Shown in pieces: positions 35,673 to 41,925 of a DNA stretch of 64,000 nt. The position numbers and the translations under genes were made by a program. The DNA is taken from contig JACQBC010000036.1 of the NCBI GenBank assembly GCA_016194635.1, positions 1 through 64,000 on the forward strand, given 5' to 3'. The stretch is from Gammaproteobacteria bacterium (lineage in GTDB: Bacteria; Pseudomonadota; Gammaproteobacteria; UBA6429; Thiohalophilaceae). Under the pieces are notes generated by a model, which saw only the letters and a list, made by a program, of their open reading frames with translations, was not told the DNA's origin and made no database searches. The first letter of the stretch is position 1; every line of letters begins with the position of its first letter.

Positions 35673-36611
35673 TTAGGCCGGAGGTTTTTTTATAAAGGCA
35701 GTTAACGCCTGTACCGCGGCGGACCGGCCAATACGTTGGCGGAAAACAGTGGCGTTGGTTTTGGTTTGTTGGGTGGCCGCTATCATGTCGCGCTGGAATT
35801 CCGGCGAGTTGATCAGGGCGACGTATTTATCCATCACCTTGGAGGCGGGCAAGTAGGGAAGTTCGCAGGCGTGATTATAACGGCTGTTGGCCTCGTGGGT
35901 CATTTGTTCGATGTTGGGGGTGCGGTCGCACAGGTCGAACGACAGGTGCAGGCTGTAATCGCTCATGGTTTGGCAGCGGTGTGGCACGCCGGCGCGAACA
36001 TACAAACCATCGCCCGGTCGCATGAGCACCTGGGTCACAAGCGGCTGCATTTGTTCTGTGCTCAGCGGTGAATTATTAAAGTACCGCCGTTGTTGCGGGG
36101 TATAGATCTCCCAGCGTTTTTCGCCTTCTAATTGTACCACCAGGACGTCATCGCTATCGCAGTGTCCGCCGTAGGCTTCGTTTTCGTGGCGCGAGAAAAA
36201 TGCCACGCAATTGGCCAAGGCGCAGGGCAGGGCCTCATCAAGCTTGGCCACAAAGGCATTGAGGGTGGGGTCGAGGATATCGAGCCCTTCCAGCACGAGG
36301 GCCGCGCCGCGCTTCAATTGATCGTTGAGTACTTCTTTGTCCATGAACAACAGTTTTTTCGTCTGCACCAGCTTCCACAGGCAGCTGGATTCCAACGCCA
36401 CGGTTTGCCCCTGCAATCGTAGTTGTACCCAGTCGGGGGTCAACAGCGGGTTATTCAAATGGTATTGCAGCGAGGCGACGGAAAAGAATCCGGGGGCAGG
36501 GGCAACTCCCGCGCCATGCGTGTATATCGGCGGGGGGGTACGACGTTGTTCGAGGTAGAAGTCCAATAATGACAAAAGCGCCGCAGGCAGGGTGGGCTGC
36601 ATAGTATTCAT
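35673..36611 (-). CDS. JmjC/cupin-like 2-oxoglutarate Fe(II) oxygenase
   Basis: A 312-residue protein of the bacterial JmjC (RoxA-like) group. The iron ligands can be placed as His150 and Asp152 in GGHCDSDDVLVVQLEGEKRWEIY, and His211 in RAGVPHRCQTMSDYSLHLSF. GDGLYVRAGVPH is the usual second motif. E. coli RoxA hydroxylates a ribosomal protein Arg; a protein hydroxylase role here is inference. The C-terminal third is helical. An in-frame ATG three codons later is an alternative start. Confidence 0.82.
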   Translation of the reverse strand: MNTMQPTLPAALLSLLDFYLEQRRTPPPIYTHGAGVAPAPGFFSVASLQYHLNNPLLTPDWVQLRLQGQTVALESSCLWKLVQTKKLLFMDKEVLNDQLKRGAALVLEGLDILDPTLNAFVAKLDEALPCALANCVAFFSRHENEAYGGHCDSDDVLVVQLEGEKRWEIYTPQQRRYFNNSPLSTEQMQPLVTQVLMRPGDGLYVRAGVPHRCQTMSDYSLHLSFDLCDRTPNIEQMTHEANSRYNHACELPYLPASKVMDKYVALINSPEFQRDMIAATQQTKTNATVFRQRIGRSAAVQALTAFIKKPPA

Positions 36612-36715
36612 ATTATTCTCCCGGTAGACTCTAAATTAAGTATTCCCAAAGAGCGCGCACCTCATCTTTTTGGAGTTGCGCTTCACAATTTTTTTGTGAA
36701 AGATCACAGGGTAAA

Positions 36716-37999
36716 TTACCGCAGTTGTTGCAGCACACGCCCCGCCGCCGCAATGCTCGCGTCGATATCCGCGGCGGTGTGCGCGCTGGAAACAAATCCC
36801 GTTTCAAACGCCGAAGGGGCGAGATATACTCCCGCGGCGAGCATGCCGTGGAAGAATTTTTTAAACCGTTCGACGTTGCATGCGCTGACCTGCGCAAAGT
36901 TGCTCACCTGCGCCGCGTCGCTGAAGAAAATTCCAAACATGCCGCCGACCTGGTTGGTGGTCAGTGGAATTCCCGCGTGTTTCGCCACCGCGCGTAAACC
37001 CTGCATGAAACGTTCGGTCATGGCGCTCAAGCGCGTGAAAAACTCCGGTGCCTGGATCAACTGCAGGGTTTTTAATCCCGCCGCCATGGCGACCGGATTA
37101 CCCGACAGGGTACCGGCTTGATATACAGGACCTAACGGGGCGATCTTTTCCATGATGGCGCGTTTACCACCGAAGGCCCCCACCGGCATGCCGCCGCCGA
37201 TCACCTTGCCGAGCGTGGTAAGGTCGGGTTTGATATTGTAATGGGCTTGGGCACCGCCCAGCGCGACGCGAAATCCGGTCATGACTTCATCAAAGATCAA
37301 CACGCTGCCGTAATGGTCGCACAACTCCCGCAGCCCCTCTAAAAAGCCCATGACCGGCGGCACGCAATTCATATTGCCCGCCACCGGCTCGACGATGATA
37401 GCGGCAATCTGCCGCCCGTGTTCTGCAAACGCCGCGCGGACTTGTTGAATATCGTTATACGACAAGGTGAGGGTGTGTTTGGCGAGATCGGCGGGGACGC
37501 CCGGCGAGGTGGGTATCCCGAGCGTTAACGCACCGGAACCGGCCTTGACCAATAAGGAATCGGCGTGGCCGTGGTAACAACCCTCGAATTTGATCAATTT
37601 ATCGCGGCCGGTATAACCGCGCGCTAAACGAATCGCGCTCATGGTGGCCTCGGTGCCGGAGCTGACCATGCGGACCAAGTCCATCGACGGGACCAGTTGG
37701 CAGACCAAATCCGCCATTTGAATTTCCAATGCGGTGGGCGCGCCAAAGGTCAGGCCGTCGCGCAGAGTTTTTTCAACCACGGCCAAGACCTCGGGATGGG
37801 CATGACCGACGATGCACGGACCCCAGGAAGCAACGTAGTCGGTGTATTGTTTATTATCGACGTCGAATAAATACGCGCCCTGGCCGCGTTTAAAAAAGAT
37901 CGGATCGCCACCCACGCCTTTAAACGCACGCACCGGTGAATTCACCCCGCCGGGGATATGCTGCTGGGCCTTGACGAACAACTCGTGCGAACGCGACAT
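36716..37999 (-). CDS. hemL: Glutamate-1-semialdehyde 2,1-aminomutase
   Basis: A 427-residue PLP enzyme giving 5-aminolevulinate in the C5 haem pathway. [56 protein letters not shown] and the PLP-lysine site [19 protein letters not shown] are invariant. It starts at 37999 with CAGGAGTACCC upstream. The 1.06-kb gap on its 5' side contains hairpin elements. Confidence 0.96.
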
Positions 38000-38222
38000 G
38001 GGTACTCCTGGGACGCTGGGGTAGTGTTATTGTGGGGGATTGTACTGGGGAGCGAGGGCAAGATCCACGTTCGACTGTGCAGTCTCGCGCTTTCTTCCGG
38101 TAGGTTTACTCGCAGGATGCAAGCCCGGGATGCGGCAGGCTACACGGCTACTAGCTCAGAACGCTTTGGAGGCGTGGTTTATACCCCAGACTCGGCAAAC
38201 CACTCACTGGTTGGCACCTAGG

Positions 38223-38399
38223 TGTTGCGGGAGTAGGTGATGTTTTCCCGTTCACATGACCGTCGACGACAGGGACGACGCACAAGGATGTGCTAGTGTC
38301 GCGACAGGCAGAATGCCGTGAGCGACCGCGCCGTCGAGCGTACAGAGACGTATTTACAGCGAGTCATGTGAAAAGGAAAACACACCTACTCCCGCAACA
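38223..38399 (+). repeat. Long inverted-repeat hairpin element, copy E (expanded core)
   Basis: Arms 38223-38260 and 38363-38399 pair over about 37 bp with two or three disruptions. The core is about 100 bp, twice that of other copies. It contains GCACA-AGGA-TGTGC (38280-38293, perfect stem), GGCA-GAA-TGCC, and the familiar CGTCGAGCGTACAGAGACGT block. The element thus carries extra hairpin modules. It lies between divergent hemL and the transglycosylase pseudogene. Confidence 0.8.
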
Positions 38400-38477
38400 T
38401 TCACCGGTCTACTATTAAAACCAGTAATCAAGGTAAATCGGACAATTTGTTTCAACATTCCAGAAATAAAGATGTTT

Positions 38478-38496
38478 AAGATCACGCGGTGATCTT
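38478..38496. repeat. Perfect small hairpin
   Basis: AAGATCAC (38478-38485) and GTGATCTT (38489-38496) form a perfect 8-bp stem around GCG. No T run follows on either strand, so it is more like a protein-binding palindrome than a terminator. Confidence 0.6.
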
Positions 38497-38530
38497 CGGC
38501 TGTGTTAATACATTGATAATTCCTAACAGA

Positions 38531-38564
38531 CAACAACATTGCAAAATCTTTTGCAGTGTTGTTG
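38531..38564. repeat. 16-bp hairpin with 2-nt loop
   Basis: CAACAACATTGCAAAA (38531-38546) and TTTTGCAGTGTTGTTG (38549-38564) pair over 16 positions with one G-T type mismatch and only TC between them. Such a long nearly gap-free palindrome is uncommon for this window. No downstream T run is present. Confidence 0.75.
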
Positions 38565-38649
38565 AGGGCTATAGTTACGACTGTGTGATAGACATTTTTT
38601 GGTGGGCGATGTCGTCCTACGCTGCTGGAGTGGTTGGTATTCCCTGTTA

Positions 38650-38740
38650 CATGACGTCGGTCGCAGGGACTAGCACGGGGATGTCGTGTATCATAGACGG
38701 GCAGGACTGCCATGAGCGACTGTAGCTGCCAAATGTACAT
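38650..38740 (+). repeat. Degenerate relative of element E (copy F)
   Basis: The sequence shares blocks with the expanded core of copy E: GCACGGGGATGT (compare GCACAAGGATGT), GGCAGGACTGCC (compare GGCAGAATGCC), and GAGCGAC closing a GTCGC/GCGAC stem. The long outer arms are almost lost. I read it as an eroded copy. Confidence 0.55.
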
Positions 38741-38949
38741 AAGTGTAGGAAAGATAGATAATGCGGGGGGCAATTGTCGAGGGATATATTTCAAAGATAA
38801 GTTTGAAGAACCACACAACGCCAAACCCAGTTACAACAGGCGGGAAGACCCAAAGGTTGAGGAAATGTATTTAGGGTACTAGCATATTGGAGGTAGTTAC
38901 TTTCTGTACAAGGTTATCCAGCTATAATTTACAAAGGCGCGAAATTTTG

Positions 38950-38978
38950 TTGACAGTTACTATTTTATGTGATTTATT
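38950..38978 (+). promoter_or_regulatory. Possible sigma70 promoter for the accessory pair
   Basis: TTGACA (38950-38955) and TTTATT (38973-38978) are separated by 17 bp in AT-rich sequence, about 80 bp before the ATG at 39062. The -35 is a consensus match and the -10 is weak. Confidence 0.4.
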
Positions 38979-39061
38979 TAATTAATACTGCATACGGATT
39001 ACATTAATAATAGCACTGAATAATAATTTAGAGATAATCGATTTAGCAAGGAGGAACTGCT

Positions 39062-39680
39062 ATGCCGCTAATGATAGTGCTTCCAACACAGGACGCGCGT
39101 TTTAATATTGATACGATTCCGAGAATGCCGAACATTGCTTGTCAGGCTCGTATTACGGGTGTGCAACCTGATCCTACAGCAACTACGTTATTCAATTGGT
39201 CGATTCAAATCACTGAAACTGTACAACTCGGCTCTTGTCCGAGTACTCGAATTAGGAATTGTAATATTACGACTGGGTGGTGCTAATAGCGCGGGTGAGC
39301 GAATAGCCTGCCAAGAAAGTCGAAAACGGCAGTTCGATGCGACAGGAATGCCTTTGCTGGGTACTGGCGGTGATGTTGGCGTGATGCAGCTGTGTAACCC
39401 TGCTGCAAATTGCAATCAGCGCTGGAACTGGTCTGCTAATGTTGACCAGGGGTTGGCATTAATAAGAACTAAAGAAACTGAAGCACGAACCTATTTAAAC
39501 GGACATCGGATAAACGGGCGGTACCCTAATGATTTGGACTTGAATGATGAGAATGTTTTATTACGAGAAACTGTACAGCGTTATAACGGTGGAACGTATT
39601 GGTCATGGAATACAGCACTCAATCAGTGGCAAGCAGCCCCTCCTAATGGATATGTCGACCTTGTGCTTGCATGCCGATAA
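39062..39680 (+). pseudogene. Frameshifted lytic-transglycosylase-domain gene
   Basis: A strong AAGGAGGA site precedes the ATG at 39062. That frame encodes DTIPRMPNIACQARITGVQP and FNWSIQITETVQLGS, then stops at 39286. The neighbouring frame, open to 39680, encodes ERIACQESRKRQFDATG, GDVGVMQLCNP, WNWSANVDQGLALI and VQRYNGGTYWSW. Together these match an SLT-type transglycosylase: Glu in CQES, then GVMQL, then a YNGG counterpart of AYNAG. A shift of one base is needed, and about 60-80 residues of the middle seem missing compared with relatives I remember. No signal peptide is present, as in cargo-type lysozymes. Confidence 0.65.
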
Positions 39681-39684
39681 ATTA

Positions 39685-40473
39685 ATGAGAAAAGTTTTAG
39701 TTATACTGTTAGGATTAATTTCCTTTTCGTACTGTGTTGGGTCGGTACCTGCTGGATTGGATTATTGGATCGACCACCTAAAATCTTTACCGCTTTTTGT
39801 GGACAAACCTGTTACGGCCTTGGGGGTGGCTGAAAACCACTTGTATATCGCTGCGGGCGAGGATTTGTTTGTGATGCTTCTTGATGGAACCGCGCTAGAA
39901 AAGGTAACGCCTAAAATTCGCAAAACAGCAGGGGACCAGGTGACGGATATTTTTGTGGATGCGACAACCCGTACACTCTGGTTGGGCTTGAATGGCAGTC
40001 TTAATTCCGCGCGAGGATACTCTTACGCGTTCGCGGCAACCCAAGTAACAAGTAAAAGTTTGAATAAAAAAATAATGCTTTATGAAAAACTTGTTAAAAA
40101 TGCCCCGCAACACTCGTCAATCAGTGCATTGGATTTTGATGCTCAGCGTGCGGTGGTTGGTTTTGTTAAGGGGAATGTGTATTGCTATTCGTTCAAGAAG
40201 AAGAACTACCGGCTGATTTATAAACCAACCAATCCGTATTCGTGGCCGGTATCGGCTGTGTTGGCGAAAGACGCGGTATTCGTGGCAGTGCCTGGGGATG
40301 GTTTGATCATTTTTGATGAAAAATCCAAACGGGTAACTCGGCTTTACGATAAATCACCGGTCACCCACATTCAAACGCTGGCCACGGACAAACAGAATTT
40401 ATACATTGGTTATCCGCGCGGTGTCGTTAAGATTAAACTACGAGATTTGCTGCAACGGGGTTCAAATCAGTAG
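39685..40473 (+). CDS. Exported propeller-like protein of unknown function
   Basis: A 262-residue protein with signal peptide MRKVLVILLGLISFSYCVGS. Its ATG is 4 bp after the transglycosylase-frame stop, so the two are coupled. Repeated beta-rich units (LYIAAGEDLFVML, RTLWLGLNGSLN, AVFVAVPGDGLIIF, NLYIGYPRGVVKI) suggest a beta-propeller. I do not recognise the family. A periplasmic partner or inhibitor of the upstream transglycosylase is one reading of the pair, without direct evidence. Confidence 0.68.
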   Translation: MRKVLVILLGLISFSYCVGSVPAGLDYWIDHLKSLPLFVDKPVTALGVAENHLYIAAGEDLFVMLLDGTALEKVTPKIRKTAGDQVTDIFVDATTRTLWLGLNGSLNSARGYSYAFAATQVTSKSLNKKIMLYEKLVKNAPQHSSISALDFDAQRAVVGFVKGNVYCYSFKKKNYRLIYKPTNPYSWPVSAVLAKDAVFVAVPGDGLIIFDEKSKRVTRLYDKSPVTHIQTLATDKQNLYIGYPRGVVKIKLRDLLQRGSNQ

Positions 40474-40488
40474 AAAAGCGTTAGATGA

Positions 40489-41160
40489 TCATTTAAGAAA
40501 CTCTACGATGGCCTCGGTCAATGCCGGGCCTTGCGCGGTGTTGAAAATATTTTGTGCGTGGGCGGAGCCTGGCAAGACTTTGATTTGTTTGGGTTCGGCT
40601 GAAGCTTTAAATATGGCCTCGACGTCGTCGTGCAGTCCATCACCCGCGGAGACAATAAAGAATTTTTTGATGGTCTTGCTGGTGATGGCTTCGCCCCCGG
40701 CGGGTGCGAGTAGGATGACTTTGGTAATTTTTGGATCTTGGGTATGTTGCAGAGCATCGAGCGTCGCAGCGCCGCCCATGCTGCCGCCAACTAAAGCCAG
40801 GTGTTTAAAGCCGGCTTTTTCCAGCCAGCTGACGGCGCCCAAAATGTCCGGGTAGAGATCGCTGCCGCTACCGCCGCTGCTTTGGCCATAACCACGAAAA
40901 TCAATTGCCAACGAGGATATACCGTTGTTTAACAGCCGCTCCGCCAACGTGTACCAGCTTTCTTTATTAAATGCCGCGCCGTGCGCGAACACCACGGCGA
41001 GATCTTTGTTGGCACTAAAAAGCGATGCTTCAATCTTGGCGCCGTCTTGGGTGGTAAAGGTTATCTTTTCCATCGTGGTCGCCATGACGAGTGAACAGGG
41101 AAACAGCAGCAACAGCAACAGCCCGGCAAAGCGTCGTGGTGCGAGTATAGCGGATAACAT
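40489..41160 (-). CDS. Exported alpha/beta hydrolase
   Basis: A 223-residue alpha/beta hydrolase. The N-terminus (MLSAILAPRRFAGLLLLLLF) is a signal peptide or anchor. VVFAHGAAFNKESW is the oxyanion strand, GGSMGGAA holds the nucleophile Ser, SAGDGLHDD the Asp, and GSAHAQN the His. DFRGYGQSSGG is typical of the family. The ATG at 41160 is preferred to one six codons upstream. Substrate unknown. Confidence 0.83.
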   Translation of the reverse strand: MLSAILAPRRFAGLLLLLLFPCSLVMATTMEKITFTTQDGAKIEASLFSANKDLAVVFAHGAAFNKESWYTLAERLLNNGISSLAIDFRGYGQSSGGSGSDLYPDILGAVSWLEKAGFKHLALVGGSMGGAATLDALQHTQDPKITKVILLAPAGGEAITSKTIKKFFIVSAGDGLHDDVEAIFKASAEPKQIKVLPGSAHAQNIFNTAQGPALTEAIVEFLK

Positions 41161-41292
41161 CGTCGGCCTTCCTTGCAATCGATCCTGGGTGTTTCAAATT
41201 ATGCGCAGTTGCCGGTGAGTTTGCAAATGTCCTTAACCCCACTATGGAGGGGATATAGATTTTAATAGATCGTTAAGATTAGCGGCCGTTTT

Positions 41293-41925
41293 TTAGTAGG
41301 ACGGTTGAAATAAAGCGGCATACGATCGCGCCGCGGCTTCAATGTCTTGGGCGCCGAACACCCCGGCGATGACGGCGATCATAGCGGCGCCTGCGTCGAT
41401 CAACACGCCGGCATTGTGCGGGGTGATGCCGCCGATCGCGGCGATCGGCAGGGCGACCTGTTGGCGCAAGGCGCGTAACACCTCAAGCGTGGCGGGTGGG
41501 GCGAGTGGCTTGGTGGTGGAGGGATAAAATCGTCCCAGCGCAATGTAATCGGCCCCGGCCTGTTGTGCCTCGTGGGCTAGACGTAGATCGGCATGGCAGG
41601 ACACACCGATGATCCGTTGCGGACCAAGTTGCGCGCGTGCTTGCGGCAACGCGGTATCGGTTTGCCCTAAATGCACACCATCGGCCGCGCACGCTAACGC
41701 CAGCTCGACATCGTCATTGATGATCAGCAGGGCCGCATGGTCAGTGCATAGGGTTCGTAATTGTTGTGCTTGGGCTAAGCGTTGCCCGGCGTTTGAGGTT
41801 TTGTCCCGGTATTGAATAATCCGCGCGCCGCCCCGCAAGGCCGCCGCCACCATCGCAGGCAAGGAGCGGTTGTGTGCCAGAGCGCTGTCGGTAATCGCGT
41901 ATAAGCCATGCAGTTGGTCGCGCAT
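41293..41925 (-). CDS. thiE: Thiamine-phosphate synthase
   Basis: A 210-residue TIM-barrel enzyme that joins HMP-PP and thiazole phosphate. IQYRDKTSNAGQRLAQAQQL, INDDVELALACAADGVHLGQTD, GRFYPSTTKPLAPPA and IGGITPHNAGVLIDAGAAMI are diagnostic. It lies downstream of thiD on the same strand after a 112-bp gap. I found no TPP riboswitch in the leader. Confidence 0.94.
   Translation of the reverse strand: MRDQLHGLYAITDSALAHNRSLPAMVAAALRGGARIIQYRDKTSNAGQRLAQAQQLRTLCTDHAALLIINDDVELALACAADGVHLGQTDTALPQARAQLGPQRIIGVSCHADLRLAHEAQQAGADYIALGRFYPSTTKPLAPPATLEVLRALRQQVALPIAAIGGITPHNAGVLIDAGAAMIAVIAGVFGAQDIEAAARSYAALFQPSY

What the first reader, a model, noticed from the sequence alone, without database searches (positions are those of the whole stretch)
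39062..40473. Broken lytic transglycosylase next to a coupled exported protein
A signal-less transglycosylase-domain gene, now frameshifted and apparently missing its middle, is followed 4 bp later by an intact exported propeller-like protein. Cell-wall effectors of interbacterial competition lack signal peptides and are paired with periplasmic immunity proteins. The pair could be a decayed effector with surviving immunity. The region is AT-rich and bordered by hairpins.
Basis: inference. Interest (0 to 1): 0.55.

Follow-up and report, generated by a model that had tools for sequence, protein, structure and literature searches.

The report
Broken cell-wall toxin with surviving antidote
A bacterium carries the wreck of a gene for a cell-wall-cutting weapon used against other bacteria, followed by an intact exported protein that is probably the antidote; intact relatives elsewhere are usually followed by such a partner, and many sit directly behind a known injection-spike gene.

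Summary
A profile of 23 relatives, built without the window, finds two collinear halves of one gene at 39062-39680, in different frames (E 2e-6 and 3e-29, the two best of 1911 window segments). About 60 codons between them are missing. There is no signal peptide; the catalytic Glu is kept. A protein with an export-type N-terminus and propeller-like features starts 4 nt later.

In 17 of 29 relatives' loci VgrG (some copies broken or cut) lies directly upstream. In 36 of 39 a partner with an export-type N-terminus follows directly, against 17 of 154 control genes. The pair lies in a 42-45% GC island in the normally tight hemL-thiE junction; core T6SS genes are elsewhere in the genome.

Most likely: a decayed peptidoglycan-cleaving effector (goose-type-lysozyme-like) whose immunity gene survives. 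Weak points: the window's partner matches no other partner by sequence, no vgrG or paar is adjacent, the best-scoring relative (Streptomyces) has no such partner, some relatives have signal peptides, and immunity is untested. The enzyme family matched no Pfam or NCBIfam model in 21 rows scanned.

The parts
39048..39054 (+). Shine-Dalgarno-like AAGGAGG before the effector start codon
   Evidence: sequence
39062..39286 (+). 5' piece of the broken effector gene: N-terminal Ig/FnIII-like domain, first half; no signal peptide
   Evidence: window-free profile E 2.1e-6; Ig/FnIII-like fold of the same region in the model of the intact relative L017
39251..39290 (+). region of the break: about 60 codons of the middle missing and frame changed
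   Evidence: profile positions 85-155 unmatched with only 40 nt between the two matches; Trp-to-Glu spacing
39285..39680 (+). 3' piece of the effector gene: goose-type-lysozyme-like / transglycosylase domain
   Evidence: window-free profile E 3.4e-29; tblastn to Burkholderia E 3e-9; domain profile of relatives hits only goose-type lysozymes in the PDB
39315..39317 (+). codon of the catalytic Glu (QES), aligned with the lysozyme Glu
39685..40473 (+). intact propeller-like protein with export-type N-terminus, 262 aa, probable immunity protein
   Evidence: position as in relatives
38500..40490 (.). AT-rich island carrying the pair
38223..38399 (.). 37-nt inverted repeat around a core that is repeated genome-wide, left border
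40489..41178 (-). alpha/beta hydrolase, further extra gene in the hemL-thiE gap; no evidence that it belongs to the pair
36716..37999 (-). hemL, left flank of the insertion site
   Evidence: gene name from general knowledge
41293..41925 (-). thiE, right flank of the insertion site
   Evidence: gene name from general knowledge

Best explanation
A decayed antibacterial effector gene with its surviving immunity gene. The intact ancestor made a cytoplasmic protein without signal peptide: a short N-terminus, an Ig/FnIII-like domain, and a goose-type-lysozyme-like domain that cuts glycan strands of peptidoglycan with a catalytic Glu. It would be carried into the periplasm of a neighbour by a contractile injection system, most simply this genome's T6SS. 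The coupled downstream gene sends a propeller-like protein to the cell's own periplasm, where it would block the toxin's active site. A deletion with frame change later destroyed the effector; the immunity frame stayed open and could still protect against neighbours that carry the weapon. Shown: the broken gene, the family, the conserved catalytic Glu, linkage to VgrG and to a partner with an export-type N-terminus in relatives, the island, core T6SS genes. Inferred: enzyme activity, delivery route, inhibition by the partner, present-day expression.
For: Two collinear halves of one gene. VgrG sequence directly upstream in 17 of 29 loci, among them broken or cut copies and one 35-aa remnant (L021). 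Partner with export-type N-terminus directly downstream in 36 of 39 loci, against 17 of 154 control genes. Domain profile of 24 relatives without the window hits only three PDB sequences at E up to 10, all goose-type lysozymes (E 5.5e-4, 5.8e-3, 1.6e-2), with the catalytic Glu in register. The LT domain is also the C-terminal module of two large repeat proteins that share Glucodextran_B and carboxypeptidase-regulatory-like domains (L053, L054), each with a partner directly behind; in L053 a second cassette follows with a peptidase M15-like end (E 2.9e-4, just under its cut-off). Own genome: TssB, two TssC, TssE-like, TssF, TssG, TssK, FHA, ClpV-like, Hcp, VgrG, DUF2169, PAAR-like. Island at a junction that is tight in nine related genomes.
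Against: The window's partner matches no other partner by sequence and nothing outside its own genome among 40 genomes of its order or 398 of its phylum. No vgrG, paar or adaptor is adjacent. The best-scoring relative, L017 (Streptomyces, 41%), and also L014 and L029, have no downstream partner by the test, and the tree puts the window outside the VgrG-linked clade, with weak support (47-60). Some relatives seem to carry their own signal peptide (L032, L033, L035 by score; L078 by eye), which does not fit injection from the cytoplasm. The full-length profile without the window had no PDB match at E 10. The family matches no Pfam transglycosylase or lysozyme model.
Confidence: 0.74

Rival explanations
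1. The enzyme and its partner are a housekeeping or nutritional pair: a periplasmic or secreted cell-wall enzyme with a binding or regulatory partner, not a weapon.
For: L032, L033 and L035 enzymes score as having signal peptides, L078 by eye; Bacteroidota relatives (L038-L043) are mostly long proteins with a neighbour of the larger partner group.
Against: VgrG linkage in 17 of 29 loci; rarity (4 of 398 genomes of the phylum, 2 of 369 of the class, 2 of 40 of the order, own genome included each time); unrelated partner families for one enzyme family; carriage on plasmid records and one viral-collection contig.
Confidence: 0.12
2. The break is an assembly error and the living cell has an intact gene.
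For: 37-contig draft; no reads available; a single copy.
Against: The change is a loss of about 60 codons, not a one-base slip, and it lies inside a contig of at least 110 kb.
Confidence: 0.1
3. The downstream protein is an unrelated exported protein that happens to lie there.
For: No sequence relation to other partners.
Against: 4-nt spacing and export-type N-terminus match the pattern of 36 of 39 relatives; 17 of 154 control genes (11%) show it. Its propeller-like matches agree with weak propeller traits of some other partners.
Confidence: 0.12
4. Both open frames are still used, as a split protein or by a programmed frameshift.
For: Both pieces are open and the conserved residues of the catalytic piece are kept.
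Against: About 60 codons, including much of the Ig-like domain, are absent, so no shift restores the family architecture.
Confidence: 0.02

Closest known systems
Tse3-Tsi3 of Pseudomonas aeruginosa (T6SS muramidase with SLT fold; passages of PMC3792639)
   Same: SLT-fold enzyme with a catalytic Glu; immunity protein with a signal peptide that occludes the active site
   Different: Our domain profile gave no PDB match other than goose-type lysozymes at E 10, so no match to Tse3; Tsi3 is described as an Ig-like beta-sandwich, not a propeller; Tse3 has calcium sites
Tse1-Tsi1 (passages of PMC3391265)
   Same: Periplasmic immunity protein that resembles a fragmented beta-propeller
   Different: Tsi1 is a three-sheet partial propeller; Tse1 has an NlpC/P60 fold
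Tse2a of Stenotrophomonas rhizophila, predicted Slt-like, with an Ivy-type immunity (passages of PMC13340143)
   Same: VgrG-linked Slt-like effector with immunity gene
   Different: Partner is Ivy-like; not compared by sequence here
T6EC3-T6IC3, SleB-like transglycosylase with predicted periplasmic immunity (passages of PMC11148199)
   Same: T6SS-linked putative transglycosylase whose toxicity needs one Glu
   Different: SleB fold; not compared by sequence here
Polymorphic toxin systems (passages of PMC3482391)
   Same: C-terminal toxin module on varied carriers with immunity gene behind it
   Different: In the held part of that survey 'transglycosylase' does not occur and 'lysozyme' once (a glucosaminidase toxin); [quoted passage not shown]

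Membership tests
T6SS cargo effector with immunity protein | gene linked to vgrG, hcp or paar | tested here: not met
   none adjacent in the window; VgrG sequence upstream in 17 of 29 relatives' loci
T6SS cargo effector with immunity protein | no signal peptide on the effector | tested here: met
   for the window; some distant relatives seem to have one
T6SS cargo effector with immunity protein | exported partner encoded directly downstream | tested here: met
   4-nt spacing, hydrophobic N-terminus by a crude score; 36 of 39 relatives
T6SS cargo effector with immunity protein | T6SS in the genome | tested here: met
   core genes present; TssA, TssJ, TssL and TssM were not looked for; function not testable
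T6SS cargo effector with immunity protein | toxicity and neutralisation by the partner | not testable with these tools
   needs expression
Goose-type lysozyme / SLT (GH23) fold | catalytic Glu in the lysozyme register | tested here: met
   alignment to three goose-type lysozymes; column is Glu in 22 of 23 aligned relatives, L017 being offset with its own Glu; window has it
Goose-type lysozyme / SLT (GH23) fold | structure match of the domain | tested here: inconclusive
   the L017 model gave matches for the Ig-like part only
Goose-type lysozyme / SLT (GH23) fold | match to a Pfam transglycosylase or lysozyme model | tested here: not met
   no such match for 21 alignment rows
Beta-propeller | repeated four-stranded blades closing a ring | tested here: inconclusive
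   low-confidence model, listed matches mostly propellers, Z at most 9.7; YncE E 0.029 by sequence

The most novel reading that the evidence does not exclude
Exported or lipid-anchored beta-propellers are a widespread, so far unnamed class of immunity proteins that pair with one unnamed family of goose-type-lysozyme-like toxins across several phyla. The toxin module moves between VgrG cassettes, orphan cassettes and large secreted carriers and switches partner family between clades. The window shows one such cassette dying while its propeller remains.
Probability: 0.45. Interest if true: 0.62.

Novelty: new variant of a known kind. Interest (0 to 1): 0.48.

Why it matters
The locus itself is a relic, but it leads to a toxin family that matched no Pfam or NCBIfam model (21 rows), whose members sit behind VgrG in Burkholderia and other proteobacteria and on the ends of large secreted proteins elsewhere. 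Unrelated kinds of partner go with the same enzyme. If confirmed, it would add propellers to the known immunity folds and give a simple case of an effector lost while its antidote is retained.

Tried and rejected
Pfam, NCBIfam and PHROGs on the window pieces: no match above a cut-off. The weak diphtheria-T-domain line for the 5' piece (E 0.18) was rejected: it is far below its cut-off and the piece belongs to the Ig-like domain. Relatives of the window's propeller: none outside the own genome in 40 order genomes and 398 phylum genomes, none in the viral collection; in plasmids one record at E 0.08 (Bacteroides, not followed). The phage collection was searched only with a whole relative of the enzyme (L003): no match. 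First genome-contig scan with the window piece alone found nothing; the scan with an alignment found 29 loci. hhalign of the window propeller with three other partners: probability 1%; phmmer and jackhmmer within a set of 25 partners gave E 0.06 to 0.7, no relation. Profiles A1 and A4, used, contain window rows, so their E-values for the window are inflated; one search repeats the test without them. The full-length profile without the window finds no PDB chain; only the domain-only profile finds the lysozymes. Foldseek and VIA-align on the L017 model tested only its Ig-like part. Rfam: no match at gathering score in 36500-41500. Flanking direct repeats at the window island: none of 24 nt or more. 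Left out of the partner count: L013 (decayed copy), L016 (ordinary phage SLT domain, by eye), L051 (G508, a short match with two stops, not followed) and L078 (found later; it has a partner by eye); G723, G453 and G018 were counted as L052, L053 and L054. Several of the 39 loci are near-identical Burkholderia copies, so the count is not of independent events. The export test is a crude hydrophobicity score; its control is 154 other frames of at least 150 aa, picked mechanically in L017-L045, some of which may not be genes. The Glu scan looks for a Glu by design; for L030 it first took a wrong one, the right one (KES) is visible in the printed line. The second partner group is single linkage at E below 0.01 in a set of 25, and some links are weak.

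Full report
What is there. The first gene starts at ATG 39062 behind AAGGAGG, runs 74 codons and stops at 39286. A shifted frame then carries 131 codons to the stop at 39680. The second gene starts at 39685 and ends at 40473 (262 aa). The genome holds one copy of each.

That the pieces are one broken gene. With a profile of 23 relatives that contains no window sequence, the two best of 1911 stop-to-stop segments of the window are 39078-39677 (E 3.4e-29, profile 156-261) and 39047-39283 (E 2.1e-6, profile 24-84); the next has E 0.019. Between the two matches 71 profile positions are unmatched but only 40 nt of DNA remain. The conserved Trp and the catalytic Glu are 82-124 residues apart in the 23 relatives and 118 nt apart in the window. 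So about 60 codons, much of the Ig-like domain and the entry to the enzyme domain, are gone and the frame is changed. The catalytic Glu, both Trp of the WNW motif, the Asn and Gly after them and the NGG motif are kept, so the break looks recent (inference).

What the enzyme is. No Pfam or NCBIfam model matches the family in a meaningful way (21 rows scanned). A domain-only profile of 24 relatives without the window hits exactly three sequences in the PDB at E up to 10, all goose-type lysozymes (3gxk E 5.5e-4, 1gbs 5.8e-3, 153l 1.6e-2), with Glu, the GxGLxQ motif and the NxG motif in register. The Glu column is Glu in 22 of 23 aligned relatives; L017 is offset there and has its own Glu beside it. 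A motif scan shows a Glu at the expected place in all 26 relatives listed, but it looks for one by design. Whether the enzyme hydrolyses or makes anhydro ends cannot be told. The N-terminal part of the relative L017 is modelled as an Ig/FnIII-like sandwich (mean pLDDT 71.7; best match 3pdd, Z 10.3, rmsd 2.1 over 87 residues); its enzyme part got no structural match there, so the fold of that part rests on sequence.

Relatives and their surroundings. tblastn of the catalytic piece found six Burkholderia plasmid records (E 3e-9 to 6e-4). In the four that I fetched with annotation the gene overlaps the end of a T6SS VgrG gene, and a small protein gene follows; a fifth record was fetched but is not annotated there, the sixth was not fetched. 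An alignment scan of the collection of species genomes gave 29 loci from Proteobacteria, Streptomyces, Acidobacteriota, Kiritimatiellae, Bacteroidota, Ignavibacteriales and others (record titles). Of 29 loci scanned, 17 have VgrG-like sequence directly upstream, including broken or cut copies (L022, L023, L024, L028) and a 35-aa remnant (L021). Of 39 loci, 36 have directly downstream (start within -80 to +60 bp) a protein of 150 aa or more with a hydrophobic N-terminus; 17 of 154 other frames of the loci L017-L045 pass the same test. The three without are L014 Cupriavidus, L017 Streptomyces and L029 Bryobacterales. Many Burkholderia loci are near copies, so these are not 39 independent events. 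One further locus, L078, found later, also has a partner by eye.

Kinds of partner. By sequence, 19 partners form one family of 174-221 aa; in 11 of them aligned, a CGAGxE-like stretch and a later Cys are nearly constant. Thirteen others link, some weakly, into a second group of 323-468 aa; three of these give a weak profile match to the PkwA structure 5yzv (E 0.01; a WD40 propeller as I recall). The partner of L078 has an FG-GAP-like match (26.8 bits, just under the cut-off of 26.9) and a HEAT match above its cut-off. L032, L033, L045, L054 and the window's partner stand alone by sequence. The window's partner has YncE as its best PDB match by sequence (E 0.029). Its single-sequence model is poor (pLDDT 56.6, pTM 0.50), yet 158 Foldseek matches have E below 0.001, and those listed are mostly propellers such as YncE and BamB; VIA-align gives Z up to 9.7 (129 aligned, rmsd 3.2), a middling value. 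This supports a propeller but does not prove it.

Carriers. The enzyme domain also ends large proteins: 1786 aa in L053 (cut at the contig end) and 1423 aa in L054, the latter from the window's own family. Both have Glucodextran_B and carboxypeptidase-regulatory-like domains ahead of the toxin end, and each has a partner directly behind. In L053 a second cassette follows with a carrier piece that looks related (by eye), a weak peptidase M15 match and another gene behind it. This is how polymorphic toxins are built (established knowledge; passages of PMC3482391). The Cupriavidus relative L014 carries a peptidoglycan-binding domain ahead.

The site. hemL was found in 36 of 39 other genomes of the order. 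In nine of them that I fetched, from seven genera, the thiE match lies 85-311 bp from hemL. In the window the gap is 3.3 kb and holds the pair plus an alpha/beta hydrolase; in G006, the one same-genus genome, it is 4.35 kb and holds an SNF2-type helicase and small frames. The pair has 42-45% GC against 53-59% next to it. So it was probably gained in this genus at a site that accepts cargo. On other contigs the genome encodes core T6SS genes (TssB, two TssC, TssE-like, TssF, TssG, TssK, FHA, ClpV-like) and an Hcp-VgrG-DUF2169-PAAR-like cassette; TssA, TssJ, TssL and TssM were not looked for.

Reading. A peptidoglycan-cutting antibacterial effector that decayed, with its periplasmic immunity gene left open. 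Delivery by the T6SS is the simplest route but less certain: the window's enzyme falls outside the VgrG-linked clade with weak support, no spike gene is adjacent, and some relatives seem to have signal peptides. With the first frame stopping some 400 nt before the second gene, translational coupling is probably lost, so expression of the survivor needs checking.

Print. Six searches of the open-access library did not show this family in the listings or in the passages that I opened; the library lacks most subscription papers and I read no paper whole. Passages seen: Tse3-Tsi3, Tsi1 as a partial propeller, an SleB-like effector, an Slt-like effector with an Ivy-like partner, PseM, a T6SS review, and the 2012 statement that propellers had not been found among immunity proteins.

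Noticed in passing
window 38223-38399: 37-nt inverted repeat; the core between its arms (about 38257-38366) recurs in the own genome: 44 matches with the query itself and its arms counted, 15 others longer than 80 nt. A MITE- or REP-like repeat family.
   Followed up: partly
L061 454-4804 (G006): Same-genus genome carries an SNF2-type helicase and two small frames in the same hemL-thiE gap; the small frames look like a toxin-antitoxin pair by eye but matched no Pfam model.
   Followed up: partly
L078 2002-2301 and 5189-5488: A related cassette in G347 lies beside gshA and is flanked by a 300-nt direct repeat (99% identical) of its 3' end region, a hint at how such cassettes enter.
   Followed up: partly
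L015 2796-7051: A viral-collection contig (53,765 bases) carries a whole VgrG, toxin and partner cassette beside phage-like genes (by eye), nearly identical by eye to the copy in L005.
   Followed up: no
L053 7187-9873: Second toxin-like cassette behind the first: PKD domain and weak peptidase M15 match, with a gene behind it whose product ends in a hydrophobic stretch.
   Followed up: partly
L013 8000-8850: Another decayed copy of the toxin gene, on a Sphingomonas plasmid, with a broken lipoprotein-like frame overlapping its end (by eye).
   Followed up: no
L055 14650-16161: 503-aa protein behind the own genome's PAAR-like gene with an HExxH-like motif by eye and no Pfam match: possible metallopeptidase effector.
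   Followed up: no
L017 3083-5470: Gene overlapping the start of the Streptomyces relative has no Pfam match; its role in delivery is unknown.
   Followed up: partly
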